This document shows, piece by piece, positions 42,947-57,164 of a stretch of DNA of 64,000 nt. The notes under the pieces are model-generated. The model saw only the letters and a program-made list of their open reading frames with translations. It was not told the origin of the DNA and searched no databases. A program made the translations under genes and the position numbers. Origin of the DNA: Parahoeflea alexandrii (GTDB taxonomy: Bacteria; Pseudomonadota; Alphaproteobacteria; Rhizobiales; Rhizobiaceae); the NCBI RefSeq assembly GCF_027214025.1, contig NZ_JAPWHB010000001.1, forward strand, positions 62,001 to 126,000. The letters run 5' to 3'. How positions within the stretch are numbered: the first letter of the stretch is position 1; each line of letters begins with the position of its first letter.

Positions 42947-43218
42947 GATCGACATTTCCTTGGACATCGTTTGATGGGACGCGGCAGCACTGACCGCGAT
43001 CCCTCATAGCGGATTCCACGGCATTGGAAAATCGTTTGTCGGGCCAGAAGGGTTGGATGCGTGATTTTGGACAAGACGGTTACAATTTGCGCCTGCTGAA
43101 TGTGGCAATCTGTTGCGACCAGTGGTCCCGCTTGTGCTTGACGGGCGTTTTCATTGGGCGCACGATCAACCCAGGGAAGCATCAGTTTCCCTGACGTCAA
43201 CAGATCGAGGATTGGCCG

Positions 43219-43476
43219 ATGAATGGTTTGAAAGTGGCAATCATTGTCCTGGCAGCCGGAACGCTGGCAGCCTGCACGACAACCGAGAAAACAGTCAGCG
43301 GGGCCGGAATAGGTGCAGCAGTCGGCGCCATTGCGACAAACAGCGCAGGTGGCGCTGTCGCAGGCGCACTGATTGGCGGCTTTGGCACCTATCTGTTCGA
43401 AACCGCCGATGGCAAATGCCAATACCGCAATTCCAGGGGCAAGATCTACACAACGCGGTGCCACTGGCGGAGATAG
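43219..43476 (+). CDS. Glycine-zipper lipoprotein
   Basis: An 85-residue lipoprotein. The leader LKVAIIVLAAGTLAACTTTEK ends in a lipobox, and GAGIGAAVGAIATNSAGGAV is a glycine-zipper region like those in small outer-membrane proteins of the Rick/OmpA-like group. Two further cysteines are in the C-terminal part (KCQYR and TRCHW). Function unknown. The following small membrane-protein gene begins 48 bases after the stop. Confidence 0.7.
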   Translation: MNGLKVAIIVLAAGTLAACTTTEKTVSGAGIGAAVGAIATNSAGGAVAGALIGGFGTYLFETADGKCQYRNSRGKIYTTRCHWRR

Positions 43477-43524
43477 CCGGACTTGCGTTTCCCGGGGCCG
43501 GCGGCAGCGTAGGGGGGATCAGTC

Positions 43525-43716
43525 ATGAAGCTGTTTGCCGTCGTGCTGGCGCTGGTGGCCGTTGCGGGGATGGCGTTTGGCTGGTGGGGGCTGGAGACGG
43601 TCTCCGGACGACGGCATTTCGATGAAATGGCCGGGATGATCCCGCTGTTTGCGGGTGTCGGGTCGATCATCCTGCTGCTGCTCGCCGCCATTCTGTATTA
43701 TTTCGCCGGCCCATAG
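43525..43716 (+). CDS. Small two-span membrane protein, 63 aa
   Basis: A 63-residue protein with two hydrophobic spans: MKLFAVVLALVAVAGMAFGW and IPLFAGVGSIILLLLAAILY, joined by a short polar loop (LETVSGRRHFDEMAG). GGGGGGATC lies before the ATG. No family is recognised. It probably belongs with the preceding lipoprotein gene. Confidence 0.6.
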   Translation: MKLFAVVLALVAVAGMAFGWWGLETVSGRRHFDEMAGMIPLFAGVGSIILLLLAAILYYFAGP

Positions 43717-43771
43717 GCCCGACAACGGTGCGAGGCCTGCTACTGGCTGGATCTCTGTTGGCCATGCCAGC

Positions 43772-44254
43772 CTACGAGATCGAAATGATCTCAAGCTCCT
43801 GATCACCGACCTCCACCACATCGCCCGCCGCCTTTCCCATCAGCGCGCGGGCGACGGGGGAGGCAAAGGAGATCGTGCCGGTTTTCGGATTGGCTTCGTC
43901 CTCGCCAACGATGCGGTATGTTTGCGGCGGGCGGCCGTCGCGGGCATAGGTCACGGTGGAGCCGAAGGCGACCACGTCATTCAAGACCGGATCGGGTATC
44001 ATCTCGGCGCTATGCACCCGCTCGGCGAAGTAGCGTGCGTCGCGCAGCGGGACGGCTTGCTGGCGCCGCTTTTCATTGACATCCTCGATCGCATTCGCCG
44101 CCTCGAATGCCGCGCGGGCCGCATCGAGGTTCGCCTGCAACTGTTTCAGCCCGTTGAGCGTCACCAGGTTTGGATGCGGAGAAATCGGCCGGTCGGGCAG
44201 TTGCGTTTCGGCCGCGGTTTCGGAACTTTCTTCCTTGGTGAAGGCGACGCTCAC
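43772..44254 (-). CDS. GreA/GreB family transcription elongation factor-like protein
   Basis: A 160-residue protein. The C-terminal half is the GreA/GreB FKBP-like domain: VAFGSTVTYARDGRPPQTYR, IVGEDEANPKTGTISFASPV and ARALMGKAAGDVVEV. The N-terminal half is a helical hairpin (NLVTLNGLKQLQANLDAARA and onwards) as in Gre factors, which rescue stalled RNA polymerase through its secondary channel. The acidic tip residues could not be confirmed, so it may be a GreA paralogue with a modified role. I take GTG 44254 with GGAGA ahead as the start. Confidence 0.83.
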   Translation of the reverse strand: MSVAFTKEESSETAAETQLPDRPISPHPNLVTLNGLKQLQANLDAARAAFEAANAIEDVNEKRRQQAVPLRDARYFAERVHSAEMIPDPVLNDVVAFGSTVTYARDGRPPQTYRIVGEDEANPKTGTISFASPVARALMGKAAGDVVEVGDQELEIISIS

Positions 44255-44471
44255 TGCAATTCTCCATCTGTGTGCTGGTGGCGGGAAGGACGGTTGCCTC
44301 ACACGCCGCGGACCCATCAAAGATAGGTTGAAACGGCACGGCGAGGCAATGCCGGTCCGTTTACGGTCAACGCGATCACGGTGGCATGGTTCCGGGACGG
44401 AGATGGAGACCAAGAGTAACTTCTCGGTGAATGCGTAGCACCAGACTTGTAGACAGTCCGGGGGACGACTC

Positions 44472-44906
44472 TCAGGTTTGCGGTGCGGCGGCCTTTATCA
44501 TCTGGACACCATTGATCTTGAAGCTGCCGTCCGGCTGGCGTTCGAGCGAATAGAGCGCAGTCCAGTCCTCGCCGTCAGGGGCCTGGATGATGACTTCCTG
44601 TACGATACCAGAGCCGTCGGCCGATGCCTTGGATCGTCCGAAGGCGAAGTTGCCGGGACGGTAGACCGGCTGGTAGCCACGCTTGACCATGTCGAAGAAG
44701 CGGCTTTCATCCGGATAGATCCGCTTGATCGAGGGGGCCGCGAAGGAATAGGCGGTTGCCATGTCGTCGGAAAGAAAGGCGTTGATCTGGCTCTCGATGA
44801 CCAAGCGCGCCGTTGCCGCGTCATTGGCGCGGGCGGGCGTCAGCGCCAGACACAGGGCTGCGAGCGATGCCGTCAGGAATGCAATGAGCTGAACGTTTCT
44901 TGTCAT
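44472..44906 (-). CDS. DUF4864 domain exported protein
   Basis: A 144-residue protein with a signal peptide (LIAFLTASLAALCLALTPARA) and a single DUF4864 domain, a SnoaL/NTF2-like fold. ESQINAFLSDDMATAYSFAA and RGYQPVYRPGNFAFGRSK are the recognisable parts. It should be periplasmic. Function unknown. GGAGGTACG precedes ATG 44906. Bases 44907-45074 separate it from the start of the reductase cluster and show no gene. Confidence 0.78.
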   Translation of the reverse strand: MTRNVQLIAFLTASLAALCLALTPARANDAATARLVIESQINAFLSDDMATAYSFAAPSIKRIYPDESRFFDMVKRGYQPVYRPGNFAFGRSKASADGSGIVQEVIIQAPDGEDWTALYSLERQPDGSFKINGVQMIKAAAPQT

Positions 44907-45074
44907 GATCGTACCTCCATGGTGTTGAAGATAGGACGGGGAACGGGAATGGAAAGTTTCACTTCGGTACGGCAAAGGCCGGAAGTTCATCCGGTTTATG
45001 AAGAGTTCGGAAATAGTGAATCAAAACATCGGAGTAGGCGTATAATCTAATGTTTCGAATCATGTGCTGGCGCG

Positions 45075-46112
45075 TCACGGCACGATCATTACCTTGCCGT
45101 CGCCGAGCTTCAGCGCGTCGGGCAGGTCGCGCATTGCATCGGCGAGCCTGACCGTCGCTACCACTTCGGTATTCCAGGCGCCCGAGATGAAGCGGTTCTG
45201 GACGGCGCGCAACGTCCGGATTTTTGTCAGAACGGAAGCCTGCCGGAACCAGTTCATCAGCCAGTAGCCCTCGATCCTCTTGCCCATGATGATGAACTGA
45301 CCGGCTTCCTTGAGCACCGGCGCTTCGGTGTCGAGCTTGCCGTAGATGATCCAGCGGGCGCGGGCCGGCATGGCGGCGAAGAGATCGGCGGCCACTTGAC
45401 CGGCGACCGCGTCAAGCAGGATTTTCGGCTTTTCGGATTTGCACAGGGCTGAAAACCTGGCTGCAAACTCCGGGTCCGACTCGACCAGAACATGTTTCGC
45501 ACCGAGCTCTCTAAGATGGTTAGCCTGGCTCTCCTTGCGGATGACGGCGATCATCACAATGCCGTTGTCTCGAGCCAGTCCCGCCATCAGCTTGCCGAGC
45601 TGGGAGAAGGCGGCCGTGAAGACGAAGCTCCTGGAGCCCGACTGCTTGACAATGTCGAACATGGTCCAGGCCGTAACCGGGTTGACCACGTGGCCTGCTG
45701 CATCCTCGTCGCGCATGGCGGACTTGACCACGACGCACATGGCCGCCTCGACGACGATGTACTCGGCCCAGGCGCCTGACCCGTTGACGCCGCCGACAAA
45801 GGCGACCCGCTTGCCCTTGAGATAGCTCGCATAGAACCCCTTGCCGTCGACCACGTCGCCGACACCCTCGAAGCCGGCAGCCGCGCCCTTGATGCACGGC
45901 TGGCCGTATTCGCCCTTGATGAAATAGAGATCGGAGGGGTTGATCGAAGCCATGCGCACCCGGATCAGCACCTGGCCCGGACCCGGTTTCGGGACGGGCA
46001 GGGAACCGTATTCGAGATAGGGATCAAGCGTCTCGATGACCGCGCCGGTCCGGGTCGGGGCGAAACCGTGGCCCCTGAGGATCAGGGCGTTCATGCTGGT
46101 GGGCAGTGACAT
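45075..46112 (-). CDS. Medium-chain reductase (quinone oxidoreductase/enoyl reductase type)
   Basis: A 345-residue MDR-family oxidoreductase, probably NADPH-dependent. GQVLIRVRMASINPSDLYFI and GFEGVGDVVDG are the family N-terminus, and FTAAFSQLGKLMAGLARDNG is the cofactor-binding turn in the TAA-S-LG form seen in 2-enoyl-thioester-like reductases. No zinc ligands of alcohol dehydrogenases are present. It is the last gene of a leftward unit after TetR, an ACAD and another MDR, 24 bases behind the latter. Likely role: reduction of a carbonyl or double bond in a CoA-ester or lipid pathway. Confidence 0.82.
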   Translation of the reverse strand: MSLPTSMNALILRGHGFAPTRTGAVIETLDPYLEYGSLPVPKPGPGQVLIRVRMASINPSDLYFIKGEYGQPCIKGAAAGFEGVGDVVDGKGFYASYLKGKRVAFVGGVNGSGAWAEYIVVEAAMCVVVKSAMRDEDAAGHVVNPVTAWTMFDIVKQSGSRSFVFTAAFSQLGKLMAGLARDNGIVMIAVIRKESQANHLRELGAKHVLVESDPEFAARFSALCKSEKPKILLDAVAGQVAADLFAAMPARARWIIYGKLDTEAPVLKEAGQFIIMGKRIEGYWLMNWFRQASVLTKIRTLRAVQNRFISGAWNTEVVATVRLADAMRDLPDALKLGDGKVMIVP

Positions 46113-46136
46113 GGTCGTATCCTTGCGACAGGGGCC

Positions 46137-47102
46137 TTACGGCACCAGGATGGTCTTGCCGACGGCGCCGCGATCGAGAATCCGCTGCAGCGCCGTTGCT
46201 GCTTCCGCCAGCGGTCGGGTCTCGTCGATATGAGGCTTGATGCGGCCTTCGGAATGCCACTGGAAGAGTTCGCGGTTGTTGATGGCGTAAACTTCCGGCT
46301 CCTTGGCGACGAATGCGCCCCAGAACACCCCGACCAGCGAATATTCCTTGAGCAGCACCAGGTTGACCGGAAGCTTGGGGATTTCGCCGGAAGCGAAGCC
46401 GATAACCAGCAGGCGGCCATTGCGGGCCATGGCCCGGGCCGCGACATCGAAGGCGGCGCCGCCAACCGGATCGAAGGCGACGTCGACGCCTCGCGGCGCC
46501 TCTCGCTTGAGCGCATCGCGCAAGCCGTCATAGGGCAGGGCTACATCGGCACCGGCATCGAGACACGCCTGCTGCTTTGCCTCGCTCGACGCGACGGCGA
46601 TGACCCGGGCGCCCATGGCCTTGCCGATGGAGATGGCGGCCAGACCGGTTGATCCGGCGGCGCCAAGCACCAGCAAGGTTTCACCCGGCTGCAGGTTGGC
46701 CCGCTGTTTCAGCGCATGATGCGAGGTTCCCCAGGCGCACATCAGTGCGCAGGCATCGGCGAAGCTCATGGTCTGGGGTATCGGGAAGGCCCTGTTTGCC
46801 GGCGCCAGCACCTTTTCGGCATAGCTGCCATTGCTCAGCATCACCACGACCCGGTCACCGGGCTTGACGTGGGTGACATTCGCGCCGGCCGCTTCGACGA
46901 TGCCTCCGGCCTCCATGCCCGGGACAAACGGCGTCTCGGGCTTCATCTGGTAGAGTCCCTGGACCAGCAGACCATCGGGATAATTCACCCCGATGGCTTC
47001 GGCCTTGATCACAACTTCGTCAGCGCCCGGCGTGGGATCAGGGAGATCCCTGAATTCCAGATTGGAAAGCGGGCCATATTCGGGACAGACAATTGCCTTC
47101 AT
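46137..47102 (-). CDS. NADPH:quinone oxidoreductase family protein
   Basis: A 321-residue zinc-free MDR protein. PTPGADEVVIKAEAIGVNYP and FVPGMEAGGIVEAAG are the N-terminal catalytic-domain motifs; LVLGAAGSTGLAAISIGKAMG is the NADPH glycine motif. Such enzymes reduce quinones or 2-enoyl compounds. It begins 6 bases after the stop of the acyl-CoA dehydrogenase gene and is followed by a second MDR gene, so the two reductases probably serve the same leftward operon. The substrate is unknown. Confidence 0.86.
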   Translation of the reverse strand: MKAIVCPEYGPLSNLEFRDLPDPTPGADEVVIKAEAIGVNYPDGLLVQGLYQMKPETPFVPGMEAGGIVEAAGANVTHVKPGDRVVVMLSNGSYAEKVLAPANRAFPIPQTMSFADACALMCAWGTSHHALKQRANLQPGETLLVLGAAGSTGLAAISIGKAMGARVIAVASSEAKQQACLDAGADVALPYDGLRDALKREAPRGVDVAFDPVGGAAFDVAARAMARNGRLLVIGFASGEIPKLPVNLVLLKEYSLVGVFWGAFVAKEPEVYAINNRELFQWHSEGRIKPHIDETRPLAEAATALQRILDRGAVGKTILVP

Positions 47103-47108
47103 GACGGA

Positions 47109-48353
47109 TCACACCTTTTCCTGTGTGTAGCGCTTGAGTTCGGTGCGCGCCACCTGGCGGCGGTGCACGGCGTCGGGACCATCGGCGAGCCTCAGCGTGC
47201 GCAGGTGGGTCCAGCTGCGGGCCAGCGGCGTGTCCTGGGAAATGCCCTGGGCGCCGAACATCTGCACCGCCTCGTCAGTGACCTTGAGCGCCACCCGCGG
47301 CGCCACCACCTTGATCTGGCTGATCCACGGCGCGGCGGCAACGGCGTTGCCCTGGTCCATCATCCATGCTGCCTTCAGGCACAGGAGCCGGGCCTGTTCG
47401 ATCTCCATGCGGCATTCGGCAATGATGTCGTAGTTGGCGCCGAGCTGGGCCAGCTTCTTGCCGAAGGCCTCGCGTTCGAGCGAGCGCTTGCACATCAACT
47501 CCAGCGCCATTTCGGCCTGGCCGATCGCCCGCATGCAATGATGGATGCGGCCGGGTCCAAGGCGGCCCTGGGCGATCTCGAAGCCCTTGCCCTCGCCAAC
47601 CAGCAGATTGCTCGCCGGGACCCGGACATCGGTGAACTTGAGATGGAAGTGGCCATGCGGCGCGTCATCCTGGCCATAGACCTGCATCGGCCGCAGCTTC
47701 TCGATGCCGGCGGTATCGGCGGGTACGAGGATCATCGAGTGACGGGCATGCTTGGGGGTGTCGTCGTCGCCGGTGCGGACCATGACGATGTAGATCTTGC
47801 AGCGCGGATCGCCGACGCCCGAGGCCCACCATTTCTCGCCGTTGAGCACGTATTCGTCGCCGTCACGGACGCAGGCCATCGAGACATTGGTGGCGTCGGA
47901 GGAGGCAACGTTCGGCTCGGTCATCAGGTAGGCGGAGCGGATTTCGCCGTTGAGCAGCGGTTCGAGCCATTGCTTCTTGTGCTCGGCGGTGGAATAGCGG
48001 TCGAACACCTCCATGTTGCCGGTGTCGGGCGCCGAGCAGTTGAAGGTCTCGGCGCCGAGATGCGCCTTGCCCATTTCCTCGGCGAGATAAGCATATTCGA
48101 CGGTCGTCAGCCCCCGGTCGGACTGGGTGCGCCAAAGGTTCCACAGGCCGCGTTCCTTGGCCTTGGCCTTCAATCCTTCGAGAATCTCGGTCTGGCGCGG
48201 GGTGTAGCTCCAGCGGTCGCCCTTGGCGCCGACTTCGGCGAGGAATTCCTCGTCAAGCGGCATGATCTCGTTGCGGACCATGTCGCGCACGGCTTCGAGA
48301 ATGGGTTCGAGATGCTTGGTGATGCCAAGATCCATCGGCTTTGCTTCGGTCAT
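47109..48353 (-). CDS. ACAD11-like acyl-CoA dehydrogenase
   Basis: A 414-residue FAD-dependent acyl-CoA dehydrogenase. The signature block [20 protein letters not shown], then [40 protein letters not shown] and [20 protein letters not shown] match the dehydrogenase half of ACAD10/ACAD11 more closely than short-chain ACADs. In those proteins it works with a kinase domain on 4-hydroxyacyl-CoAs. The separate kinase gene lies at 50062 in the divergent operon. GGAGGAGAATATCC precedes the ATG. It follows TetR by 24 bases on the same strand. Confidence 0.88.
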
Positions 48354-48377
48354 GGATATTCTCCTCCAGATGTTCGT

Positions 48378-49037
48378 TCAGGGCATATCGCCCGTGTAGC
48401 CAAGAAGCCGGATGGCGTAGAGCACGCACTCGTCCGCCACGGCTTCGATCTCTCTTTCGTCCTGGCCCTTTCGCGGCGTGAACCAGACGATGGGTCCGTT
48501 GATGCACATGAAGACCGAGTTGAGTGCGATCTTGATGTTTGCGTAGGCGATGTCGCCGTCGGCCATCGCGTCTTCGAGCACCTTCAGGAAGTGATCGGAA
48601 TAGGCGTCGCGCAGGCCGGCCAGCTGACGAAGTTCGGCATGTTCGTTGGCCGGCATGGTGCCATGCCTGAGCATGTCCACGCCCTGGCCAACGACGTTCT
48701 GAAAGGCCTTGGTACGGATTACGCACATGACATGCGCCTTGAGCATGGCCTTGAGGCGGTCGATGGCCGGCATGTCGCGCTCGAGGATCGGCTCAATCGC
48801 CTGGAAGTTCATCATCATGCCGGTGCGGTAAACATCGAGAAACAGTTCCGCCTTCGAGGCATAGTGGTGGTAGATCCGGCCCTTGGTCGAGGAAATCCGC
48901 GCCGCGACCTCGTCGAGGCTGGTGGCAGAATATCCGCGCGACTCAAAACACAAGGCGGCCCCCTCCATGATTTCCATGCGGGATAGATCGGTGTCGCTCT
49001 GACGCCGGTATTTGGTCGATCGCGCCGCGGTCGCCAT
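48378..49037 (-). CDS. TetR/AcrR family transcriptional regulator
   Basis: A 219-residue repressor. The N-terminal helix-turn-helix (SRMEIMEGAALCFESRGYSA, then SLDEVAARISSTKGRIYHHY) is classical TetR. The C-terminal helical part is a ligand pocket of unknown preference, plausibly an acyl-CoA or hydroxy acid by context. It heads the leftward unit with the ACAD and two MDR genes and is divergent from the SDR-kinase-SDR unit. A perfect inverted repeat at 49127-49146, 90 bases upstream of its start, is the probable operator for both directions. Confidence 0.9.
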   Translation of the reverse strand: MATAARSTKYRRQSDTDLSRMEIMEGAALCFESRGYSATSLDEVAARISSTKGRIYHHYASKAELFLDVYRTGMMMNFQAIEPILERDMPAIDRLKAMLKAHVMCVIRTKAFQNVVGQGVDMLRHGTMPANEHAELRQLAGLRDAYSDHFLKVLEDAMADGDIAYANIKIALNSVFMCINGPIVWFTPRKGQDEREIEAVADECVLYAIRLLGYTGDMP

Positions 49038-49126
49038 TGATTGCCTGCCTGTTTCCTGTCTCGCGGCATTCGCGCCGGTCGATGCGAAGAATATTTTCAA
49101 ACCGTCTTGCAGTCTGCGATGACTTG

Positions 49127-49146
49127 AACATACTATCGAGTATGTT
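49127..49146. promoter_or_regulatory. TetR operator (perfect 8-4-8 inverted repeat)
   Basis: AACATACT-ATCG-AGTATGTT is perfectly palindromic in both 8-base arms. It lies between the divergent tetR and SDR genes, and its right arm overlaps the first two bases of the -35 element at 49145. Size and position are typical of TetR-family operators. Confidence 0.8.
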
Positions 49147-49172
49147 GTCAATCGACGAGACAGCGCTATTGT
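49145..49172 (+). promoter_or_regulatory. Candidate promoter of the SDR-kinase-SDR operon
   Basis: TTGTCA (49145-49150), a 16-base spacer and TATTGT (49167-49172) precede the SDR start at 49227 by about 55 bases. The operator abuts its -35 element. Confidence 0.55.
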
Positions 49173-49226
49173 CAGGAGGCGATGCGAAGGCGTGTACGCA
49201 TTCGATCGCGCGGGGAGAGAGAAACG

Positions 49227-50060
49227 ATGAGTGAAGCCAGCGACAGCTATCTGGGCAGTCTTTTCGGTGTGAGCGGCAAGACGGCACTGGTGACCGGAGG
49301 CGCCACCGGGATTGGCCGGATGATCGCGACCGGGCTGGTCCAGGCCGGTGCCCGCGTGATGATCGCTTCGCGCAAGGGCGAGGATTGTGTCCGGGTAGCC
49401 GAGGAAATCAATGCGCTTGGCGCGCCGGGTTCGGCCGAGGGATTTGCCGGGGACGTCGGCACCTCCGAAGGCGTGGCGGATCTGGTCGAGGCCGTCAAGG
49501 CGCGGACCGATCGCCTCAACATCCTGGTCAACAATGCCGGCGTGTCCTGGGGTGCTCCTTATGAGGAGTTTCCCCATGCGGCCTGGGCCAAGGTGATGTC
49601 GGTGAATGTGGCCGGGCTGTTCACGCTGACCCGGGACCTGACGCCGCTGCTCGTCGGGGCGGCAAGCGACGCGGATCCGGCACGGGTGATCAATCTGGGA
49701 TCGGTCATGGGCACGCAGCCCGCCGCCGACGGGGCCTACTCTTATTCGGCCTCAAAGGCTGCGGTGCATCACCTGACCCGCATTCTTGCCGAAGAGCTTG
49801 CCGGCCGGCGCATCACCGTCAATGCGTTTGCGCCCGGACCGTTTCAAAGCCGGATGACGGCCTTCGCTACAGCCAGGGACGAACAGGTCGAGCGCGTCAG
49901 CGCAGGCGTTCCGCTTGGCCGGATCGGCGGGCCCGACGATGTGGCCGGCGCTGCGCTCTATCTTTGCAGCCGGGCAGGGTCCTACATCACCGGCGCGATC
50001 CTGCCGATCGACGGCGGCCTTTCCGTGCAACACGATATTCGCCTGTTCAAGGATGCCTGA
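49227..50060 (+). CDS. SDR family oxidoreductase (RhlG-like)
   Basis: A 277-residue classical SDR. VSGKTALVTGGATGIGRMIA is the NADPH motif, NNAGVSWGAP follows, and the catalytic triad is in NLGSVMG (Ser) and YSYSASKAAV (Tyr, Lys); GAILPIDGGLSV closes the fold. The pattern resembles RhlG-type 3-oxoacyl reductases, so a hydroxyacyl or ketoacyl substrate is likely. GGGGAGAGAGAAACG precedes ATG 49227. First gene of the rightward TetR-controlled operon; the kinase gene starts 1 base after its stop. Confidence 0.87.
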   Translation: MSEASDSYLGSLFGVSGKTALVTGGATGIGRMIATGLVQAGARVMIASRKGEDCVRVAEEINALGAPGSAEGFAGDVGTSEGVADLVEAVKARTDRLNILVNNAGVSWGAPYEEFPHAAWAKVMSVNVAGLFTLTRDLTPLLVGAASDADPARVINLGSVMGTQPAADGAYSYSASKAAVHHLTRILAEELAGRRITVNAFAPGPFQSRMTAFATARDEQVERVSAGVPLGRIGGPDDVAGAALYLCSRAGSYITGAILPIDGGLSVQHDIRLFKDA

Positions 50061-50061
50061 C

Positions 50062-51087
50062 ATGGACGCAGAACCCTTTGACATGGAAGCCCTGGCGGAC
50101 GAGCTGCACGAACTCGTGCCGGGTTTTTCCGGTCTGCATGCGATCGAGAAATTCAACACCGGCCAGTCCAATCCGACCTACCGGGTGGAAGCCGACAGCG
50201 GGCGCTATGTGCTCAGGGCCAAGCCGCCGGGAACCTTGCTTAAATCGGCCCACCAGGTGGACCGCGAGTACCGGGTGATGAAGGCGCTGGCCGAAAACAA
50301 CGTGCCGGTGCCGAAGGTCTATGGCCTGTCGGGTGAGGACAGCGCCATCGGGCGGATGTATTTCGTCATGGAACTGGTCGAAGGCCGTATCTTCTGGGAT
50401 CCGGCCCTGCCAGAGGTCAGCAAGCAGGAGCGCGCCGCGATCTATGACGGCATGAACGACGTGCTGGCCCGGCTTCATTCAGTCGATGTCGAGGCTGCCG
50501 GACTGGCGGACTTCGGACGCCCCGGCAATTATTTCGCCCGGCAGATCCGGCGCTGGAGCGAGCAGTACATCGCCAGCAAGACCGAAGAGCTGCCGGATGT
50601 GGACCGGTTGATGGATTGGCTGTGGGAGAACCTGCCCGATGATGACGGCAGGGTGTCGGTGGTGCATGGCGACTACCGTCTCGACAACATGATCTTTGCT
50701 CCGCATGGCGAGGAAGTCCGGGCGCTGATCGACTGGGAGCTATCGACGCTGGGCCACCCGCTGGCCGATCTGTCCTACCAGTGCATGCAGTGGCGTCTGC
50801 CGCACAAGAGCGGTTTCCGGGGCCTGGGCGGTCTTGACCGGGCAGAGCTCGGGATCCCGACTGAAGCCGAGTATGTGGCGCTCTATTCCGAGCGCAGTGG
50901 CATCGCGGTCGACAACTGGACCTTCTGTCTGTCGTTCTCGTTCTTCCGGCTCGCCGCGATCCTGCAGGGCGTCTACAAGCGCGCGCTCGACGGCAATGCC
51001 TCCAATCCCGAACGGGCCCGTGAAATTGGTAAGGCCGTGCCGCAACTTGCGGCCATGGCAAACGACATCATGTCCGGAAAGGCTTGA
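50062..51087 (+). CDS. APH-like kinase, ACAD10/11-associated type
   Basis: A 341-residue kinase of the aminoglycoside/choline phosphotransferase fold. FNTGQSNPTYRVEADSGRYV is the nucleotide loop, VVHGDYRLDNMIF the catalytic HGDxxxxN, and LIDWELSTLGHPLADLSYQC the metal-binding Asp. The IDWELSTLG block is the form found fused to ACAD in ACAD10/11 and in LvaA-type kinases that phosphorylate 4-hydroxyacyl-CoAs. I take ATG 50062, 8 bases after AAGGA; ATG 50053 overlaps the SDR. The second SDR gene begins 3 bases after its stop, so it is the middle gene of a tight operon. Confidence 0.86.
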   Translation: MDAEPFDMEALADELHELVPGFSGLHAIEKFNTGQSNPTYRVEADSGRYVLRAKPPGTLLKSAHQVDREYRVMKALAENNVPVPKVYGLSGEDSAIGRMYFVMELVEGRIFWDPALPEVSKQERAAIYDGMNDVLARLHSVDVEAAGLADFGRPGNYFARQIRRWSEQYIASKTEELPDVDRLMDWLWENLPDDDGRVSVVHGDYRLDNMIFAPHGEEVRALIDWELSTLGHPLADLSYQCMQWRLPHKSGFRGLGGLDRAELGIPTEAEYVALYSERSGIAVDNWTFCLSFSFFRLAAILQGVYKRALDGNASNPERAREIGKAVPQLAAMANDIMSGKA

Positions 51088-51090
51088 ACA

Positions 51091-51867
51091 ATGGCGGATT
51101 TTCAAGGACGCGCGGTCATCGTCACCGGCGCCACCGGCGGGTTTGGTCAGGCGGCAATACGGCACTTCGCTCAAGCCGGTGCCAAGCTGGTGATCAGCGA
51201 TCTGGCGTCGGAGCGGCTTGATGCTCTGGCCAAAGAGCTCGGCGGCCAGGCGGTCGCAGTCAGCGGGGATATTTCCGATCCGGAGCTGTCCGAACGGTTG
51301 GTGGAAACCGCGCTGTCGGAATTCGGCAGGCTCGACATAGCCATCAACAATGCTGGCATCGTGCATGACATGATGCCTTTGCCGAGGACACCGATTGCAG
51401 ACGCTCGCAAGGTGATCGATATCGACCTGATGGGCGTGTTCTACGCCATGCGGGCGCAACTGCCGGCGCTTGAGCAGCGTTTTCGCGAAACCGGCGAAAC
51501 CGGCGCCATCGTCAATGTCGCCTCGGTTGCCGGCGTGGTCGCAGCACCAATGCTCGCGATCTATGCCGCGGCAAAGCACGGGGTGGTGGGACTGACAAAA
51601 TCGGCGGCGATCGAATATGCGCGTCGCGGTGTTCGGGTCAACGCGCTGTGTCCGTCGTTTGCTCGGACACCCATGGCGACCGATTTTCTCGACAAGGCCG
51701 GCAAGGATCGCGCAGCGGCGGAAGCCGCGATGGTTCAGGCAATCCCGATGCGGCGGCTGGCCGAGGTCGAGGAGGTGATTGCCGGCATGATCTATCTCGC
51801 TGATCCGGCGTCGAGCTTTGTTACCGGCCAAACCCTGCAGGTCGACGGCGGTCTGTCGGCCTCCTGA
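51091..51867 (+). CDS. SDR family oxidoreductase
   Basis: A 258-residue classical SDR. FQGRAVIVTGATGGFGQAAI is the cofactor motif, NNAGIVHDMMPL follows, with Ser in NVASVAGVV and IYAAAKHGVV as the Tyr/Lys motif; GQTLQVDGGLSAS closes the fold. Probably oxidises a 3- or 4-hydroxyacyl intermediate or reduces a keto group. It is 3 bases behind the kinase gene and ends the rightward operon. The next gene, mmsA, lies 119 bases on and belongs to another pathway. Confidence 0.87.
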   Translation: MADFQGRAVIVTGATGGFGQAAIRHFAQAGAKLVISDLASERLDALAKELGGQAVAVSGDISDPELSERLVETALSEFGRLDIAINNAGIVHDMMPLPRTPIADARKVIDIDLMGVFYAMRAQLPALEQRFRETGETGAIVNVASVAGVVAAPMLAIYAAAKHGVVGLTKSAAIEYARRGVRVNALCPSFARTPMATDFLDKAGKDRAAAEAAMVQAIPMRRLAEVEEVIAGMIYLADPASSFVTGQTLQVDGGLSAS

Positions 51868-51986
51868 CGCATCTGCGGGTTTGTAGGGCTACGGTTTTTG
51901 CACATCGGTTGAGCAATTCGGCTGATTGAACTTCAAGTTCGGTGAGCGCAAGATGCATTCAACGTAATCATTCCGGAGGCAGGACC

Positions 51987-53483
51987 ATGCAAGAACTCAC
52001 CCATTATATCGGCGGCCAGCATGTGAAGGGCAAATCCGGCCGGTTCGCCGACGTGATGAACCCGGCAACCGGGGAAGTGCAGGCGAAGGTACCGCTGGCC
52101 TCCAACGAGGAATTGGCGGAAGCCGTGGCGATTGCCGCCAGGGCTCAGGTCGGCTGGGCTGCCACCAATCCGCAGAAGCGCGCCCGGGTGCTGATGAAGT
52201 TCGTCGAGCTCTTGCACCGTGACATGGACAAGCTGGCCGAGGCGCTGTCGCGCGAACACGGCAAGACCATTCCCGACGCCAAGGGCGACGTGATCCGCGG
52301 GCTGGAAGTGGCCGAGTTCTGCTTCGGCGCGCCACATCTGCTCAAGGGCGAGTTCACCGAGGGCGCGGGTCCGGGCATCGACATGTATTCGCTGCGCCAG
52401 CCACTCGGCGTCGTCGCGGGCATCACGCCCTTCAACTTTCCGGCGATGATCCCGATGTGGAAATTCTGCCCGGCAATCGCCGCCGGCAACGCCTTCATCC
52501 TCAAGCCCTCCGAACGCGATCCGTCGGTGCCGCTGATGCTGGCCGAACTGATGAGCGAGGCCGGCGCTCCGGACGGCATTCTCAATGTGGTCAACGGCGA
52601 CAAGGATGCGGTCGACGCGATTCTCGATCATCCGGAAATCATGGCCATCGGTTTTGTCGGATCGACCCCGATCGCTCAGTACATCTATGCCCGCGGCTGC
52701 GCCAACGGCAAGCGGGTGCAGTGCTTCGGCGGCGCCAAGAACCACATGATCATCATGCCCGACGCCGACATGGACCAGGCCGTCGACGCGCTGATCGGCG
52801 CCGGTTACGGCGCTGCCGGCGAACGCTGCATGGCGATCTCGGTCGCCGTTCCGGTTGGCGAAAGGACCGCCGATCTGCTGATCGAGAAGCTGGCGCCGCG
52901 GGTCGAGGCCCTGAAGATCGGACCCTACACCGATAATGACGTCGATTTCGGCCCGCTGGTGACGCGCGAGGCGCGCGACCGGGTGCTCGGTCTGGTCAAT
53001 TCCGGCGTGGAGCAGGGGGCCAAGCTGGTGGTCGACGGCCGCAATTTCTCGATGCAGGGCTACGAGAACGGCTATTTCGTCGGCGGCTGCCTGTTCGACA
53101 ATGTCACCCGTGACATGGACATCTACACCCAGGAGATCTTCGGGCCGGTGCTTTCCGTGGTCCGCGCGCCGACCTATGCCGAGGCGCTGCGTTACCCGAT
53201 GGAACACGAATACGGCAACGGCACCGCGATCTACACCCGCGACGGCGACACCGCGCGCGATTTCGTCAGCCGCATCAATATCGGCATGGTCGGTGTCAAT
53301 GTGCCGATCCCGGTGCCGCTGGCTTATCATACCTTCGGCGGCTGGAAGAAATCCGGCTTCGGCGACCTGAACCAGCATGGTCCGGATGCATTCCGCTTCT
53401 ATACGCGCACCAAGACGGTGACCGCGCGCTGGCCTTCCGGTATCAAGGAAGGGGCCGAGTTCGTCATTCCGACCATGGGATGA
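51987..53483 (+). CDS. mmsA: CoA-acylating methylmalonate-semialdehyde dehydrogenase
   Basis: MmsA oxidises methylmalonate semialdehyde (and malonate semialdehyde) with CoA and NAD to propionyl-CoA or acetyl-CoA, the end of valine breakdown. The 498-residue protein has VVAGITPFNFPAMIPMWKF, FVGSTPIAQYIY, GAKNHMIIMPDAD and the catalytic Cys in GAAGERCMAISV, then IFGPVLSVVR and GVNVPIPVPLAYHTFGGWK. The length and the lack of the usual Glu nucleophile-activator fit CoA-acylating ALDHs. GGAGGCAGG precedes ATG 51987. First gene of the valine operon. Confidence 0.95.
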   Translation: MQELTHYIGGQHVKGKSGRFADVMNPATGEVQAKVPLASNEELAEAVAIAARAQVGWAATNPQKRARVLMKFVELLHRDMDKLAEALSREHGKTIPDAKGDVIRGLEVAEFCFGAPHLLKGEFTEGAGPGIDMYSLRQPLGVVAGITPFNFPAMIPMWKFCPAIAAGNAFILKPSERDPSVPLMLAELMSEAGAPDGILNVVNGDKDAVDAILDHPEIMAIGFVGSTPIAQYIYARGCANGKRVQCFGGAKNHMIIMPDADMDQAVDALIGAGYGAAGERCMAISVAVPVGERTADLLIEKLAPRVEALKIGPYTDNDVDFGPLVTREARDRVLGLVNSGVEQGAKLVVDGRNFSMQGYENGYFVGGCLFDNVTRDMDIYTQEIFGPVLSVVRAPTYAEALRYPMEHEYGNGTAIYTRDGDTARDFVSRINIGMVGVNVPIPVPLAYHTFGGWKKSGFGDLNQHGPDAFRFYTRTKTVTARWPSGIKEGAEFVIPTMG

Positions 53484-53526
53484 GTAACGCCGGGTGCAGT
53501 GTCAGGGATAGGGAGGCGGATTTGCC

Positions 53527-54675
53527 ATGGATTTTGAGCTGAACGAGGAACAGCAGGCGATCTTCGACATGGCGCGCGACTTCGGCGCCGAGAAGATCGC
53601 CCCGTTTGCGGCCCAGTGGGAGAAGGAAGAGGCGATCCCGCGGTCGGTGCTTGAAGAAGCAGCCGCCCTCGGGCTGGCGGCAATCTACGTTCCGGAAGAG
53701 GACGGCGGGTCGGGCCTGACCCGGCTCGACGCGACCCTGGTGTTCGAGGCGTTGTCGATGGCCTGTCCGTCTGTTGCTTCGTTCCTGTCGATCCACAATA
53801 TGTGCACCTGGATGGTCTCGTCCTACGGTTCGGACGAGATGAAGGCGCGGCTGCTGCCCGATCTCGTCACCATGAGCAAGATCGCCTCCTATTGCCTGAC
53901 CGAACCCGGTTCGGGGTCGGATGCCTCGGCGCTCAGGACCCGCGCCGAGCGCACCAACGAGGGCTACAAGCTCAACGGCACCAAGGCGTTCATTTCCGGC
54001 GGCGGTTTTTCCGATCTCTACCTGGTGATGAGCCGCACCGGGGCGGATGGCCCGAAGGGTATCTCGGCGGTGATCGTCGAGGATGGCACGCCCGGACTCT
54101 CCTTCGGCGCGCCGGAGAACAAGATGGGCTGGCGCTCGCAGCCGACCTCGCAGGTGCAGTTCGACGATTGCGTCATTCCTGCCGACAACCTGCTGGGTGA
54201 GGAAGGCGCGGGCTTCCGCTACGCGATGAGCGGACTGGACGGCGGGCGGCTGAATATTGCCGCTTCCGCACTCGGCGGTGCGCAATCGGCGCTCGACAAG
54301 ACGCTGGCCTACATGGGCGAGCGCGAAGCCTTCGGCAAGACCATCGACCAGTTCCAGGCGCTGCAGTTCCGGCTGGCCGACATGGAAACGGAAATGCAGG
54401 CGGCGCGGATCTTCCTGCGCCAGGCCGCAAGCAAGCTCGACCGCAAGGCGCCGGACGCGACGAAATACTGCGCGATGGCCAAGCGATTTGTCACCGACAC
54501 CGCCTTCAACGTGGCCAATGACGCGCTGCAGCTGCATGGCGGTTACGGCTACCTGGCCGATTATGGCGTCGAGAAGATCGTCCGCGATCTTCGCGTGCAC
54601 CAGATCCTCGAGGGCACAAACGAGATCATGCGGCTGATCGTGTCGCGGGCGCTGCTGGCGGAACGCGCCGCATGA
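53527..54675 (+). CDS. Isobutyryl-CoA dehydrogenase (acyl-CoA dehydrogenase)
   Basis: A 382-residue FAD-dependent acyl-CoA dehydrogenase, about the length of short/branched-chain enzymes. FELNEEQQAIFDMARDFGAE opens the helical domain; YCLTEPGSGSDASALRTRAE and GGGFSDLYLVMSRT lie in the beta domain; LHGGYGYLADYGVEKIVRDL and HQILEGTNEIMRLI mark the C-terminal domain with the catalytic-base region. Context between mmsA and a 3-hydroxyisobutyryl-CoA hydrolase makes isobutyryl-CoA to methacrylyl-CoA its probable reaction. Its last 4 bases overlap the next start (ATGA). Confidence 0.9.
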   Translation: MDFELNEEQQAIFDMARDFGAEKIAPFAAQWEKEEAIPRSVLEEAAALGLAAIYVPEEDGGSGLTRLDATLVFEALSMACPSVASFLSIHNMCTWMVSSYGSDEMKARLLPDLVTMSKIASYCLTEPGSGSDASALRTRAERTNEGYKLNGTKAFISGGGFSDLYLVMSRTGADGPKGISAVIVEDGTPGLSFGAPENKMGWRSQPTSQVQFDDCVIPADNLLGEEGAGFRYAMSGLDGGRLNIAASALGGAQSALDKTLAYMGEREAFGKTIDQFQALQFRLADMETEMQAARIFLRQAASKLDRKAPDATKYCAMAKRFVTDTAFNVANDALQLHGGYGYLADYGVEKIVRDLRVHQILEGTNEIMRLIVSRALLAERAA

Positions 54676-55694
54676 GCATCCGCATCCGCAAGATCGGCCG
54701 GATCGGACAGATCACGCTGCAGCGGCCCGAAGCCCTCAACGCGGTCACCTACGAGATGGTGCTGGCAATCGAGGCTGCGCTCGACGGCTGGCGCGACGAC
54801 GATGACGTCGCCTGCGTGCTGATCGATGCGGAAGGCCACAAGGCCTTCTCCGCCGGGGGCGATCTGCAGTTCATGCATGACACCGCGTCCAAGGGCGATT
54901 TCGATGCGGGCCGGACCTTCTGGCGCGACGAATACCGGCTCAACGCCAAGATTGCCGCCTACCCGAAACCGTATATCGCATTGTGCCAGGGTTTCACCAT
55001 GGGCGGCGGCGTTGGCGTGTCGCTGCATGGCTCGCACCGGGTGGTGGGCGAAAGCTCGAAGATCGCGATGCCGGAATGCGCGGTCGGGCTGGTGCCCGAT
55101 GTTGGCGGCACGTTGCTGCTGGCGCGTGCGCCGGGACGGCTAGGGGAGTATCTCGGCGTAACCGGCTACCGGATGAACGCGCCGGACGCGATCCTGGCAG
55201 GCTTTGCCGACTATTTCATCCCCGAGGCCGAGTGGCCGGGGCTGACCGAAGCGTTGATCGAGACCGGGGATGCGTCGGCGGTCCAGTCGATGGCGCAAGA
55301 TCCCGCGGACGGGCTGTTGATGGGGTTGCGCGAAGACGTCGATGCCCATTTCGGCGGGGCCAAGCTGAGCGAAATTCTCGCAGGCTTGCCGGACAATGAC
55401 TGGGGAGCGGCTACAGCAAAGAGCATTCGCGCCGGATCACCGCTCTCGGCGAGCTGCACCATCGAACTGGTGCGCCGTGCCCGGGCCGGTAATGACATCC
55501 GGGCCGCGCTGCAACAGGAGTACCGTTTCACCTCGCGCAGCGCGTCGGAGGGAGACTTCGTCGAGGGCATTCGTGCGGCAATCATCGACAAGGACAGGAA
55601 CCCGCGCTGGCGTCACGCAAGCGTCGAAGATGTGACAGCTGAAACGGTGGCGGCGATGCTGTCTGAACCACCGGGCGGCGATATCGATATTTAG
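54672..55694 (+). CDS. 3-hydroxyisobutyryl-CoA hydrolase (enoyl-CoA hydratase fold)
   Basis: A 340-residue crotonase-fold protein. RIGQITLQRPEALNAVTYEM, FSAGGDLQFMHD and QGFTMGGGVGVSLHGSHRV carry the oxyanion hole, and MPECAVGLVPDVGGT the catalytic Glu/Asp segment. The extra C-terminal length compared with hydratases (about 260) is typical of 3-hydroxyisobutyryl-CoA hydrolase, which releases 3-hydroxyisobutyrate in valine breakdown. It overlaps the dehydrogenase gene by 4 bases and precedes mmsB by 47 bases. Confidence 0.92.
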   Translation: MSIRIRKIGRIGQITLQRPEALNAVTYEMVLAIEAALDGWRDDDDVACVLIDAEGHKAFSAGGDLQFMHDTASKGDFDAGRTFWRDEYRLNAKIAAYPKPYIALCQGFTMGGGVGVSLHGSHRVVGESSKIAMPECAVGLVPDVGGTLLLARAPGRLGEYLGVTGYRMNAPDAILAGFADYFIPEAEWPGLTEALIETGDASAVQSMAQDPADGLLMGLREDVDAHFGGAKLSEILAGLPDNDWGAATAKSIRAGSPLSASCTIELVRRARAGNDIRAALQQEYRFTSRSASEGDFVEGIRAAIIDKDRNPRWRHASVEDVTAETVAAMLSEPPGGDIDI

Positions 55695-55741
55695 CCACGG
55701 CTCTGTCAGCCGTTCGGGATTGAAGTGTTTGGGAGGACGTC

Positions 55742-56596
55742 ATGAAAATCGGATTTATCGGACTGGGAAACATGGGCGCGCCGATGGCGGCGAACCTGAT
55801 CAAGGCAGGACACCAGGTGACCGGCTTCGATGTTGCGGGCGTCACCGTGGAAGGCGCGGCCAAGGCGGGCTCCGCTGCGGAAGCGGCCAGCGGGCAGGAT
55901 GCGGTGATCACCATGCTGCCCAACGGCGATATCCTGCGCTCGGTCTATGCCGAGATCGTGCCGGCGGGCGCGAAGGGCGCGGTGTTCATCGATTGCTCCA
56001 CCGTTGATGTCGACAGCGCCCGCGCCGCCCACGAGATGGCTGCCGCAAACGGTCTGCTCTCCGTCGATGCGCCGGTGTCGGGCGGCGTCGGCGGCGCGGC
56101 TGCCGGGACGCTGACTTTCATGGCCGGCGGCAGCGACGAGGCATTTTCGCGCGCCGCGCCGCTGTTCGAGATCATGGGCAAGAAGGCGGTACATTGCGGC
56201 GAGGCCGGCGCTGGCCAGTCTGCCAAGATCTGCAACAACATGCTGCTCGGCATCTCGATGATCGGGGCCTGCGAAGCCTTCGCGCTGGCCGAGAAGCTCG
56301 GCCTGTCGGCGCAGAGCCTGTTCGACGTCGTGTCGACCTCGTCCGGCTCCTGCTGGTCGGTCAACACCTATTGCCCGGTGCCCGGCGTCGGCCCGCAAAG
56401 CCCCGCCGACAATGGCTACAAGCCGGGCTTTGCTGCCGAACTGATGCTCAAGGATCTCAAGCTGTCGCAGCAGGCGGCGGAGAGTGTATCCGCCCAGACG
56501 CCGATGGGCGCGCGGGCAACCGAACTCTACGATCAGTTCGTGGCGGGCAAGGGCAAGGGCCGCGATTTCTCGGCGATGATCGAGGAACTGAAATAG
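55742..56596 (+). CDS. mmsB: 3-hydroxyisobutyrate dehydrogenase
   Basis: MmsB oxidises 3-hydroxyisobutyrate with NAD to methylmalonate semialdehyde, the substrate of MmsA. The 284-residue protein has MKIGFIGLGNMGAPMAANLI with the NAD glycine motif, FIDCSTVDVDSAR, DAPVSGGVGGAAAGTLTFMA (substrate loop), GQSAKICNNMLLGISMIGAC with the catalytic Lys, and KDLKLSQQAAE. GGGAGGACGTC precedes the ATG. It completes the set mmsA, dehydrogenase, hydrolase, mmsB in one run. Confidence 0.95.
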   Translation: MKIGFIGLGNMGAPMAANLIKAGHQVTGFDVAGVTVEGAAKAGSAAEAASGQDAVITMLPNGDILRSVYAEIVPAGAKGAVFIDCSTVDVDSARAAHEMAAANGLLSVDAPVSGGVGGAAAGTLTFMAGGSDEAFSRAAPLFEIMGKKAVHCGEAGAGQSAKICNNMLLGISMIGACEAFALAEKLGLSAQSLFDVVSTSSGSCWSVNTYCPVPGVGPQSPADNGYKPGFAAELMLKDLKLSQQAAESVSAQTPMGARATELYDQFVAGKGKGRDFSAMIEELK

Positions 56597-56615
56597 CGGC
56601 ATCGGCAGGAGGCGA

Positions 56616-57164
56616 TCAGTCCGGCATGTCCGGGAAACCTTGTTCGAGCGCGCGGCGCAGGCGTACCTTCACCGACGCCGCCTGTTCGGTGCGGATCGCG
56701 TTTTCCAGCAGGATGCGGACCTCGGTGCGATATCCCGGATGTGCCAACGCGAGATGATGCAGGCCGGTATAGGCCCAGGCCCGAACGAACTTGTTCTGAT
56801 CCTCGCGGCAGGCAAGCACGAAACGGAAGACGAGATCGGCGCTCTCTCCGGTCAATGTCAGATACGGTAGAATCTGCAGGCAATGCAGCTTGGCTTCCCA
56901 GCCGGTCAGCCCAGGCAGGGTCAGTGCCAGCTTGTGCGCCAGCGTGGGATTGAGCCCCCGTTTCGTAACTTCCATGTGATACTTGAGCAGCCACGTCGCA
57001 CCGGTCTCGAGCGTTTGATCCGCCGACATGGCGATCAACCTTTCGGCGAAACCGGGTTCGGCTGCAAAACTGCCGTAGATCCGCTTGATCGCGCCAGCGG
57101 ACTTCCCATCCCAGGATTGCAGCTTTTCTTCCAATCCATCCATTGCTTCTTGATACCCGGACAT
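56616..57164 (-). CDS. Hypothetical helical-repeat protein
   Basis: A 182-residue cytoplasmic protein made almost wholly of helices: WLLKYHMEVTKRGLNPTLAH, WEAKLHCLQILPYLTLTGES and ACREDQNKFVRAWAYTGLHH read as HEAT-like pairs. No catalytic motif or leader is seen, and I cannot name a family. It converges on mmsB with a gap of 19 bases. A binding or adaptor role is the most that the fold suggests. Confidence 0.7.
   Translation of the reverse strand: MSGYQEAMDGLEEKLQSWDGKSAGAIKRIYGSFAAEPGFAERLIAMSADQTLETGATWLLKYHMEVTKRGLNPTLAHKLALTLPGLTGWEAKLHCLQILPYLTLTGESADLVFRFVLACREDQNKFVRAWAYTGLHHLALAHPGYRTEVRILLENAIRTEQAASVKVRLRRALEQGFPDMPD

What the first reader, a model, noticed from the sequence alone, without database searches (positions are those of the whole stretch)
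45075..51867. TetR-controlled, split ACAD10/11-like pathway: kinase and dehydrogenase in divergent operons with four reductases
Seen: leftward TetR, ACAD, MDR, MDR and rightward SDR, APH-type kinase, SDR, with gaps of 1-24 bases inside each arm. The ACAD has the [16 protein letters not shown] and [14 protein letters not shown] blocks of ACAD11, and the kinase has the HGDYRLDN and IDWELSTLG blocks of its kinase half. Established: ACAD10/11 and the Pseudomonas Lva enzymes use such a kinase plus dehydrogenase to remove a 4-hydroxyl from acyl-CoAs through a phosphorylated intermediate. Inference: this is a dedicated regulon for 4-hydroxy acids, lactones or related branched compounds. No acyl-CoA ligase and no LvaB-like gene is seen, and the four reductases suggest extra oxidation steps, so the substrate may differ from levulinate.
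Basis: partly seen in the sequence, partly recalled or inferred. Interest (0 to 1): 0.75.

Follow-up and report, generated by a model that had tools for sequence, protein, structure and literature searches.

The report
TetR-regulated 4-hydroxyacyl-CoA kinase/dehydrogenase gene cluster
A bacterium close to Hoeflea carries, as two back-to-back gene sets that probably share one DNA switch, counterparts of the two halves of the human enzyme ACAD11, which strips a hydroxyl group from fatty-acid-like molecules so that they can be burned for energy.

Summary
The seven genes are there as described. The ACAD is ACAD10/11-type (49% identical to mouse ACAD11; HCMR motif and the catalytic Asp kept; clade support 100/100) and the kinase matches the ACAD11 kinase domain (42%). 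New here: a 20-bp palindrome, AACATACT-N4-AGTATGTT, at 49127-49146 between tetR and SDR1, is the likely operator. In 43 loci with an orthologous ACAD it lies upstream in 19 of 19 with such a tetR beside the ACAD and in 3 of 24 without; in the own genome it occurs once. In some relatives the same site also precedes a LIV-type ABC transporter with an acyl-CoA ligase, and beta-oxidation operons, two of them led by a lactonase-family hydrolase. The missing ligase is a Hoeflea trait: several other left arms carry one. Best reading: a TetR-repressed module that feeds 4-hydroxylated (perhaps lactone-derived or dicarboxylic) acids into beta-oxidation through a 4-phospho-acyl-CoA. Chemistry is inferred by homology; substrate and inducer are unknown. 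LvaA/LvaC sequences could not be obtained, so the Lva side of the proposed tree test stays open. New variant of a known kind.

The parts
45075..46112 (-). MDR1, medium-chain reductase, 345 aa; last gene of the left arm
   Evidence: Pfam ADH_N, ADH_zinc_N; closest solved chain 3pi7, 365 bits, named NADH oxidoreductase; role inferred only
46137..47102 (-). MDR2, PIG3/quinone-reductase-like medium-chain reductase, 321 aa
   Evidence: TIGR02824 218 bits, below its cut-off 296.8; 4eye 226 bits
47109..48353 (-). ACAD10/11-type acyl-CoA dehydrogenase, 414 aa, expected to eliminate phosphate from 4-phosphoacyl-CoA
   Evidence: mouse ACAD11 8v3u 419.9 bits against 138 bits for the best MCAD chain; [14 protein letters not shown] and LRLADGP kept; clade 100/100
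48378..49037 (-). TetR-family regulator, 219 aa
   Evidence: TetR_N, TetR_C_24; TKGRIYHH in 7 of 10 aligned orthologues
49127..49146 (.). Candidate operator: palindrome AACATACT-ATCG-AGTATGTT
   Evidence: only site with 0 or 1 mismatch in the own genome; conserved with changed spacer in relatives; co-occurs with tetR
49145..49172 (+). Promoter-like site TTGTCA-16-TATTGT touching the operator
   Evidence: consensus scan only; 2 sites found in 48950-52100 against 0.9 expected
49227..50060 (+). SDR1, 277 aa, TGGATGIG and YSASK motifs
   Evidence: adh_short; 2b4q 233 bits; motifs
50062..51087 (+). APH-fold kinase of the ACAD11 kinase-domain type, 341 aa
   Evidence: APH 184 bits; 3dxp 372 bits, ACAD11 8v3v 260 bits; HGDYRLDN with catalytic Asp
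51091..51867 (+). SDR2, 258 aa, TGATGGFG and YAAAK motifs
   Evidence: adh_short; motifs; no solved chain at E up to 1e-50
51987..56596 (+). Neighbour, membership uncertain: valine-degradation genes (MMSDH, an acyl-CoA dehydrogenase, 3-hydroxyisobutyryl-CoA hydrolase, HIBADH)
   Evidence: TIGR01722, NF004127 and TIGR01692 cut-offs met; the acyl-CoA dehydrogenase meets none; next to the cluster in the Hoeflea loci

Best explanation
This is a TetR-repressed catabolic module for 4-hydroxylated acyl-CoAs. A TetR dimer sits on the palindrome at 49127-49146, abutting a promoter-like site of SDR1, and shuts both arms; an acid or its CoA ester releases it (inferred). The APH-type kinase phosphorylates the 4-hydroxyl of the acyl-CoA and the ACAD10/11-type flavoenzyme removes the phosphate to give the 2-enoyl-CoA, which enters beta-oxidation (inferred from homology to ACAD11 and the Lva enzymes). 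One SDR probably interconverts 4-oxo and 4-hydroxy acyl-CoA as LvaD does; the other probably oxidises the (3R)-hydroxyacyl-CoA made by a MaoC hydratase, which lies in the arm in several relatives and elsewhere in this genome (inferred). The two MDRs may be enoyl-CoA reductases (weak inference). In some relatives the operator also precedes uptake (LIV ABC transporter), CoA ligation and beta-oxidation genes, so the regulon as a whole would import, activate, rearrange and degrade such acids.
For: The catalytic Asp of each half, mutated in the ACAD11 structures, is kept (PMC12440821 passages). ACAD clade of 74 rows with human and mouse ACAD11 at 100/100, apart from MCAD and four other bacterial ACADs. 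HCMR in 72 of 73 high-scoring rows and in 0 of 7 lower-scoring ACAD rows that were listed. Operator upstream of the ACAD in 19 of 19 loci with tetR beside it and in 3 of 24 without. Where the two arms lie apart in a genome, each has a site: L020 with L057, L040 with L058. 29 forward sites at up to 1 mismatch in 17 of 24 genomes; the reversed control pattern gives 1 site in 1 of 24. The 7 sites viewed outside the core arms (of 9) precede acyl-CoA or transport genes. 25 of 40 chosen ACAD10/11-type loci have the kinase in the same stretch; the other 15 genomes have one elsewhere.
Against: No activity, inducer or binding has been measured. In the own genome the operator occurs once, and at up to 3 mismatches the pattern is no commoner than its control (4 against 6), so no wider regulon is shown for this genome. 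Four Hoeflea loci (L012, L016, L017, L018) lack tetR and operator but keep kinase and ACAD, so the control is dispensable. Three loci (L029, L034, L035) have the site without an adjacent tetR; TetR-like genes lie elsewhere in the same genome or locus. No ligase of the relatives' type was found in the own genome (best 32%). L029 reads HTMR, not HCMR. In genomes with several ACADs of this type the kinase elsewhere may serve another copy (for example G060, G218, G323).
Confidence: 0.72

Rival explanations
1. The kinase/ACAD pair has moved to another substrate class: it phosphorylates and eliminates a hydroxyl on an alicyclic, branched or dicarboxylic acyl-CoA, and the MDRs and SDRs are ring- or branch-specific steps.
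For: In four relatives the operator precedes FadJ-like and thiolase genes, in three of them with two ACADs; of the two tested, L108 meets the PimC cut-off and L110 does not. Two of the four start with a hydrolase that meets TIGR02427, 3-oxoadipate enol-lactonase. Two MDRs and two SDRs exceed what the lva pathway needs.
Against: These genes are absent from the window, and in the own genome the pim-like operon lies beside an IclR-type gene (my reading) without the operator. The relatives' ligase resembles long-chain fatty acid ligases, far below cut-off.
Confidence: 0.3
2. A levulinate pathway (lva) under a different regulator.
For: Same kinase, ACAD and SDR trio; LvaD reduces levulinyl-CoA (PMC6692424 passages).
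Against: No LvaB-sized gene fits in the arms, no ligase, TetR in place of LvaR; four reductases instead of one.
Confidence: 0.15
3. A branch of valine or branched-chain acid catabolism, since the valine genes follow directly.
For: MMSDH, 3-hydroxyisobutyryl-CoA hydrolase and HIBADH follow SDR2 after 119 bases; homologues of all four genes follow in 11 of 11 named Hoeflea loci.
Against: MmsA was not found in any of the 20 loci L020-L037, L039 and L040, some of them cut by contig ends, while the core genes are.
Confidence: 0.1

Closest known systems
ACAD10/ACAD11 of mammals (PMC12440821, PMC11342911)
   Same: Kinase and ACAD homologous over most of their length (42% and 49% identity to mouse ACAD11); HCMR motif, the catalytic Asp of both halves, and the Arg that I read as the conserved upstream one (QGRL) are kept
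   Different: Two separate proteins in divergent operons, not one fused chain; TetR control; extra SDR and MDR genes
lva operon of Pseudomonas putida (as described in PMC6692424 and PMC12440821; original paper not held)
   Same: Kinase, ACAD and SDR of the same families in one cluster
   Different: No LvaB, no LvaE in the arms, TetR with a palindromic site in place of LvaR, two MDRs; in some relatives a LIV ABC transporter, MaoC and thiolase
pimFABCDE dicarboxylate operon (title of Harrison and Harwood 2005 seen in a reference list; NCBIfam PimA, PimC, PimD)
   Same: A PimC-type ACAD (cut-off met) with a second ACAD, FadJ-like protein and thiolase stands behind the same site in L108
   Different: Not in the window; in the own genome beside an IclR-type gene and without the operator; PimD cut-off not met in L106, L108 or L110

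Membership tests
ACAD10/11-type acyl-CoA dehydrogenase | HCMR motif, stated as ACAD10/11-specific and essential | tested here: met
   [14 protein letters not shown] in the window protein (L041 row; statement in PMC12440821)
ACAD10/11-type acyl-CoA dehydrogenase | Catalytic Asp (read by me as the residue that is Asn in the A* structure 8v3v) | tested here: met
   LRLADGP in window and 8v3u, LRLANGP in 8v3v
ACAD10/11-type acyl-CoA dehydrogenase | Falls with ACAD11 and outside other ACADs in a tree | tested here: met
   100/100, branch 2.85, 79 rows; the five outgroup rows have long branches
ACAD10/11-type acyl-CoA dehydrogenase | Eliminates phosphate from 4-phosphoacyl-CoA | not testable with these tools
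   needs enzyme assay
4-hydroxyacyl-CoA kinase (LvaA / ACAD11 kinase domain) | Catalytic Asp of HGD (Ala in the K* structure 8v3u) | tested here: met
   HGDYRLDN aligned to HGDFKLDN of 8v3v
4-hydroxyacyl-CoA kinase (LvaA / ACAD11 kinase domain) | Phylogenetic grouping with the ACAD11 kinase domain | tested here: inconclusive
   Mouse kinase domain is on the same 64-row side of the tree (93/91), away from 9fsg, but on a long branch inside an open fork
4-hydroxyacyl-CoA kinase (LvaA / ACAD11 kinase domain) | Phosphorylates 4-hydroxyacyl-CoA with ATP | not testable with these tools
   needs enzyme assay
lva operon | LvaB partner of about 12 kDa beside the kinase | tested here: not met
   Gaps of 1-24 bases inside the arms leave no room; the scan of 43000-57000 for ORFs of 80 aa or more shows none there
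lva operon | LvaE-type acyl-CoA ligase in the operon | tested here: not met
   None, by my reading, among the ORFs of 43000-57000; present in several relatives' arms
lva operon | LvaA and LvaC are the closest relatives in a tree | not tested
TetR-operator regulon | Conserved palindrome in the divergent gap that co-occurs with the regulator | tested here: met
   19 of 19 with tetR, 3 of 24 without; the loci are related, so the Fisher value printed there overstates significance
TetR-operator regulon | The regulator binds the palindrome and represses | not testable with these tools
   needs DNA-binding and expression assays

The most novel reading that the evidence does not exclude
An undescribed alphaproteobacterial regulon, marked by AACATACT-N4-AGTATGTT, that degrades gamma-lactones or 4-hydroxy (di)carboxylic acids from the outside medium completely: LIV-type uptake, lactone opening, CoA ligation, 4-phosphorylation and elimination by split ACAD11 halves, and pim-like beta-oxidation, with Hoeflea keeping only the core beside its valine genes.
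Probability: 0.3. Interest if true: 0.62.

Novelty: new variant of a known kind. Interest (0 to 1): 0.47.

Why it matters
The papers on ACAD10/11 date from 2024 and 2025, and the bacterial side rests mainly on the lva genes of Pseudomonas. A regulator with a defined candidate operator and, in relatives, a linked transporter, ligase and beta-oxidation set gives a testable route to the natural substrates of this enzyme class in bacteria, a possible sensor for 4-hydroxy acids or lactones, and candidate enzymes for such compounds.

Tried and rejected
Chance palindrome: an exact 8-base-arm palindrome with spacer 0-8 turns up in 98 of 5000 shuffles of the 189-base gap, so the palindrome alone is weak; conservation with changing spacers and co-occurrence with tetR carry the claim.

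Wider regulon in the own genome: no support, one exact site and no excess at up to 3 mismatches. Ligase of the relatives' type elsewhere in the genome: not found (best 32%); a MaoC (57%) and a thiolase (69%) are elsewhere.

The own kinase-family hit at C10:1070785 lies in a household stretch and reads as a homoserine kinase (my reading of L055; not scanned). PA3973, a TetR next to an ACAD in Pseudomonas aeruginosa, was checked and differs: 13-bp motif SAAGRNMTGAACG and an AidB homologue (PMC9736018 passages). A 2025 RB-TnSeq paper on dicarboxylic acids (PMC12543098) has no occurrence of phosphotransferase, aminoglycoside, 4-hydroxy or lactone in its main text. A first tally of adjacent tetR by six-frame ORFs missed five loci (L014, L023, L025, L026, L031) through a distance artefact and was replaced by tblastn. 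My codon-based ORF caller failed on some A+T-rich loci (L034, L098, L100, L113); L034 and L113 were redone with plain ORFs. Fetched but not looked into: L053, L056, L060, L064.
Full report
WHAT IS THERE. The window belongs to a 5.54-Mb genome (G000:C10:62001-126000) whose nearest named relatives are Hoeflea species (kinase 96% and ACAD 98% identical in Hoeflea alexandrii). The seven ORFs of the finding are confirmed with the families expected and with gaps of 24, 6, 24 | 189 | 1, 3 bases.

ACAD AND KINASE. Against solved structures the ACAD scores 420 bits with mouse ACAD11, 411 with human ACAD11, but only 138 with the best MCAD chain. The kinase scores 372 bits with 3dxp and 260 with the ACAD11 kinase domain. 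PMC12440821 describes a kinase-dead (K*, PDB 8v3u) and an ACAD-dead (A*, 8v3v) mutant (passages); the chains differ from each other as HGA against HGD and LADGP against LANGP, and the window keeps HGD and LADGP. The paper calls the HCMR motif ACAD10/11-specific and essential (passage). It is in the window and in 72 of 73 rows above 600 bits (three of these rows are one protein fetched three times); L029 reads HTMR, PDB 4hr3 reads HAMR, and it is in 0 of the 7 rows of 150-194 bits that were listed; 40 rows below 150 bits were not listed. A 79-row tree puts the window ACAD with human and mouse ACAD11 at 100/100, apart from MCAD and four other bacterial ACADs; the program warns of long outgroup branches. 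The kinase tree is less decided, with the mouse domain on a long branch. Two papers report that ACAD10/11 phosphorylate 4-hydroxyacyl-CoA and lead it to the enoyl-CoA (passages); one reports that bacterial proteins related to the halves can replace them.

CONSERVATION OF THE SET. Of 32 loci fetched with the kinase, 13 hold all seven genes in the same divergent layout (L010, L011, L013, L014, L015, L038, L023, L024, L025, L027, L030, L031, L032); the others lack one or more genes or are cut by contig ends. In 299 genomes drawn from the same phylum, 85 have an ACAD match at E up to 1e-85. Of 40 such loci that I chose (the best 21 rows less a few near-duplicates, then a spread; not a random draw), 25 have the kinase in the same stretch; a weak 103-bit hit in L087 was not counted. 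The other 15 genomes all have a kinase match elsewhere, at 34-60% identity for the best one (which examined 17 genomes); some of these kinases stand by another ACAD copy. So the two halves occur together, often side by side.

WHAT RELATIVES ADD. In several relatives a MaoC-like hydratase stands between SDR1 and the kinase, for example L027, L028, L030, L067 and L071, joined in some by an extra SDR (L028) or a thiolase (L030) (Pfam tested for MaoC of L027, thiolase of L030 and extra SDR of L059). The left arm continues in L027/L061, L028/L063, L057 and L058 into LivHMGF, an AMP-binding ligase and a periplasmic binding protein (ligase and binding protein tested for L058); others, such as L030, L067 and L071, show no such continuation. 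In the genomes of L020/L057 and L040/L058 the two arms lie apart. The window lacks these additions; the own genome's best MaoC (57%) and thiolase (69%) are elsewhere and its best ligase match is 32%.

OPERATOR. The divergent gap holds AACATACTATCGAGTATGTT at 49127-49146, touching a promoter-like -35 box at 49145. It is the only site with 0 or 1 mismatch in the own genome; at up to 3 mismatches there are 4 sites against 6 for the control. Among 43 loci with an orthologous ACAD (the window not counted), 19 of 19 with a tetR of this type beside the ACAD carry the site (up to 2 mismatches) and 3 of 24 without do. The exceptions L034 and L035 have a TetR-like gene behind the kinase (for L034; for L035), and the genome of L029 has one beside another site (L110). 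Among 11 named Hoeflea loci, site and tetR are both present in 7 and both absent in 4; these loci are not independent. Where the arms are split, each half has its own site. The stretch TKGRIYHH, which I take for the recognition helix, is identical in 7 of 10 aligned TetRs, with TKGMIYHH in L028, TKGRIYHY in L071 and TKGIVYHY in L030; the non-Hoeflea ones share only about 31-44% with the window TetR.

REGULON IN RELATIVES. At up to 1 mismatch there are 29 forward sites in 17 of 24 genomes, against 1 control site in 1 genome. By coordinates 20 stand at the core arms and 9 elsewhere. Of the 9 I viewed 7. Four precede genes for FadJ-like and thiolase proteins (G013:C3 = L108, G014:C9 = L109, G015:C1 = L110, G017:C12 = L112), with two ACADs in L108, L109 and L110; the contig of L112 ends before that. 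Of these only L108 and L110 were scanned for pim: the PimC cut-off is met by L108 (681 against 624) and not by L110 (481); PimD is below its cut-off in both. One precedes a 600-aa acyl-CoA dehydrogenase (G015:C11), one LivHMGF-ligase-LivK, and one an MDR2-like, thioesterase-like, SDR, SDR, hydrolase operon (both G020). The two in G021 were not viewed. The operons of G013 and G017 begin with a hydrolase that meets TIGR02427 (3-oxoadipate enol-lactonase). In the own genome a pim-like operon (PimA and PimC cut-offs met, PimD not) lies beside an IclR-type gene (my reading).

MECHANISM. Shown: genes, motifs, ACAD clade, palindrome, its co-occurrence with tetR. Inferred: repression and induction; 4-phosphorylation and elimination; roles of SDR1, SDR2, MDR1, MDR2; substrate. 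LvaD, an SDR, reduces levulinyl-CoA to 4-hydroxyvaleryl-CoA (PMC6692424 passages), which makes an SDR beside this pair expected. The MaoC partner suggests that another SDR handles (3R)-hydroxyacyl-CoA. A lactonase-family gene and pim-like genes behind the same site hint at lactone-derived or dicarboxylic 4-hydroxy acids, only in relatives and only as a lead.

NOVELTY. PMC6692424 already states that lvaABCD homologues occur in alpha-, beta- and gammaproteobacteria (passage), so the pair itself is not new. In the open library I found no account of this TetR, its palindrome or this gene set (listings; passages of two papers; Rand 2017 not held; subscription journals mostly not searchable). I rate it a new variant of a known kind.

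Noticed in passing
L054:1865-4110 (G000:C66): A second ACAD10/11-type ACAD and kinase pair in the own genome (49% and 57% to the window's), overlapping by 4 bases, in a cluster with TetR, LIV ABC transporter, acyl-CoA ligase, enoyl-CoA hydratase, two ACADs and an aldehyde dehydrogenase, most of them by my reading (ligase scanned).
   Followed up: partly
L106 (G000:C50:206000-225900): A pim-like dicarboxylate operon (PimA and PimC cut-offs met) beside an IclR-type gene; in relatives similar genes stand behind the TetR site.
   Followed up: partly
L127 (NZ_CP081114.1:25000-52000): A 72.8-kb Sulfitobacter plasmid carries the kinase, an ACAD10/11-type ACAD, LIV transporter, two more ACADs, histidine phosphatase, SDRs and ligases in one stretch.
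   Followed up: no
L123:5130-8367 and L124:6078-8500: Recurrent small set: histidine phosphatase (L123), a 103-104 aa SCP2-like protein (my reading), a distant kinase (32-33%) and an SDR; no ACAD10/11-type gene was labelled near it.
   Followed up: no
window 51987-56596: Valine-degradation genes directly behind SDR2, also in 11 of 11 named Hoeflea loci and not seen in the 20 loci of other genera.
   Followed up: partly
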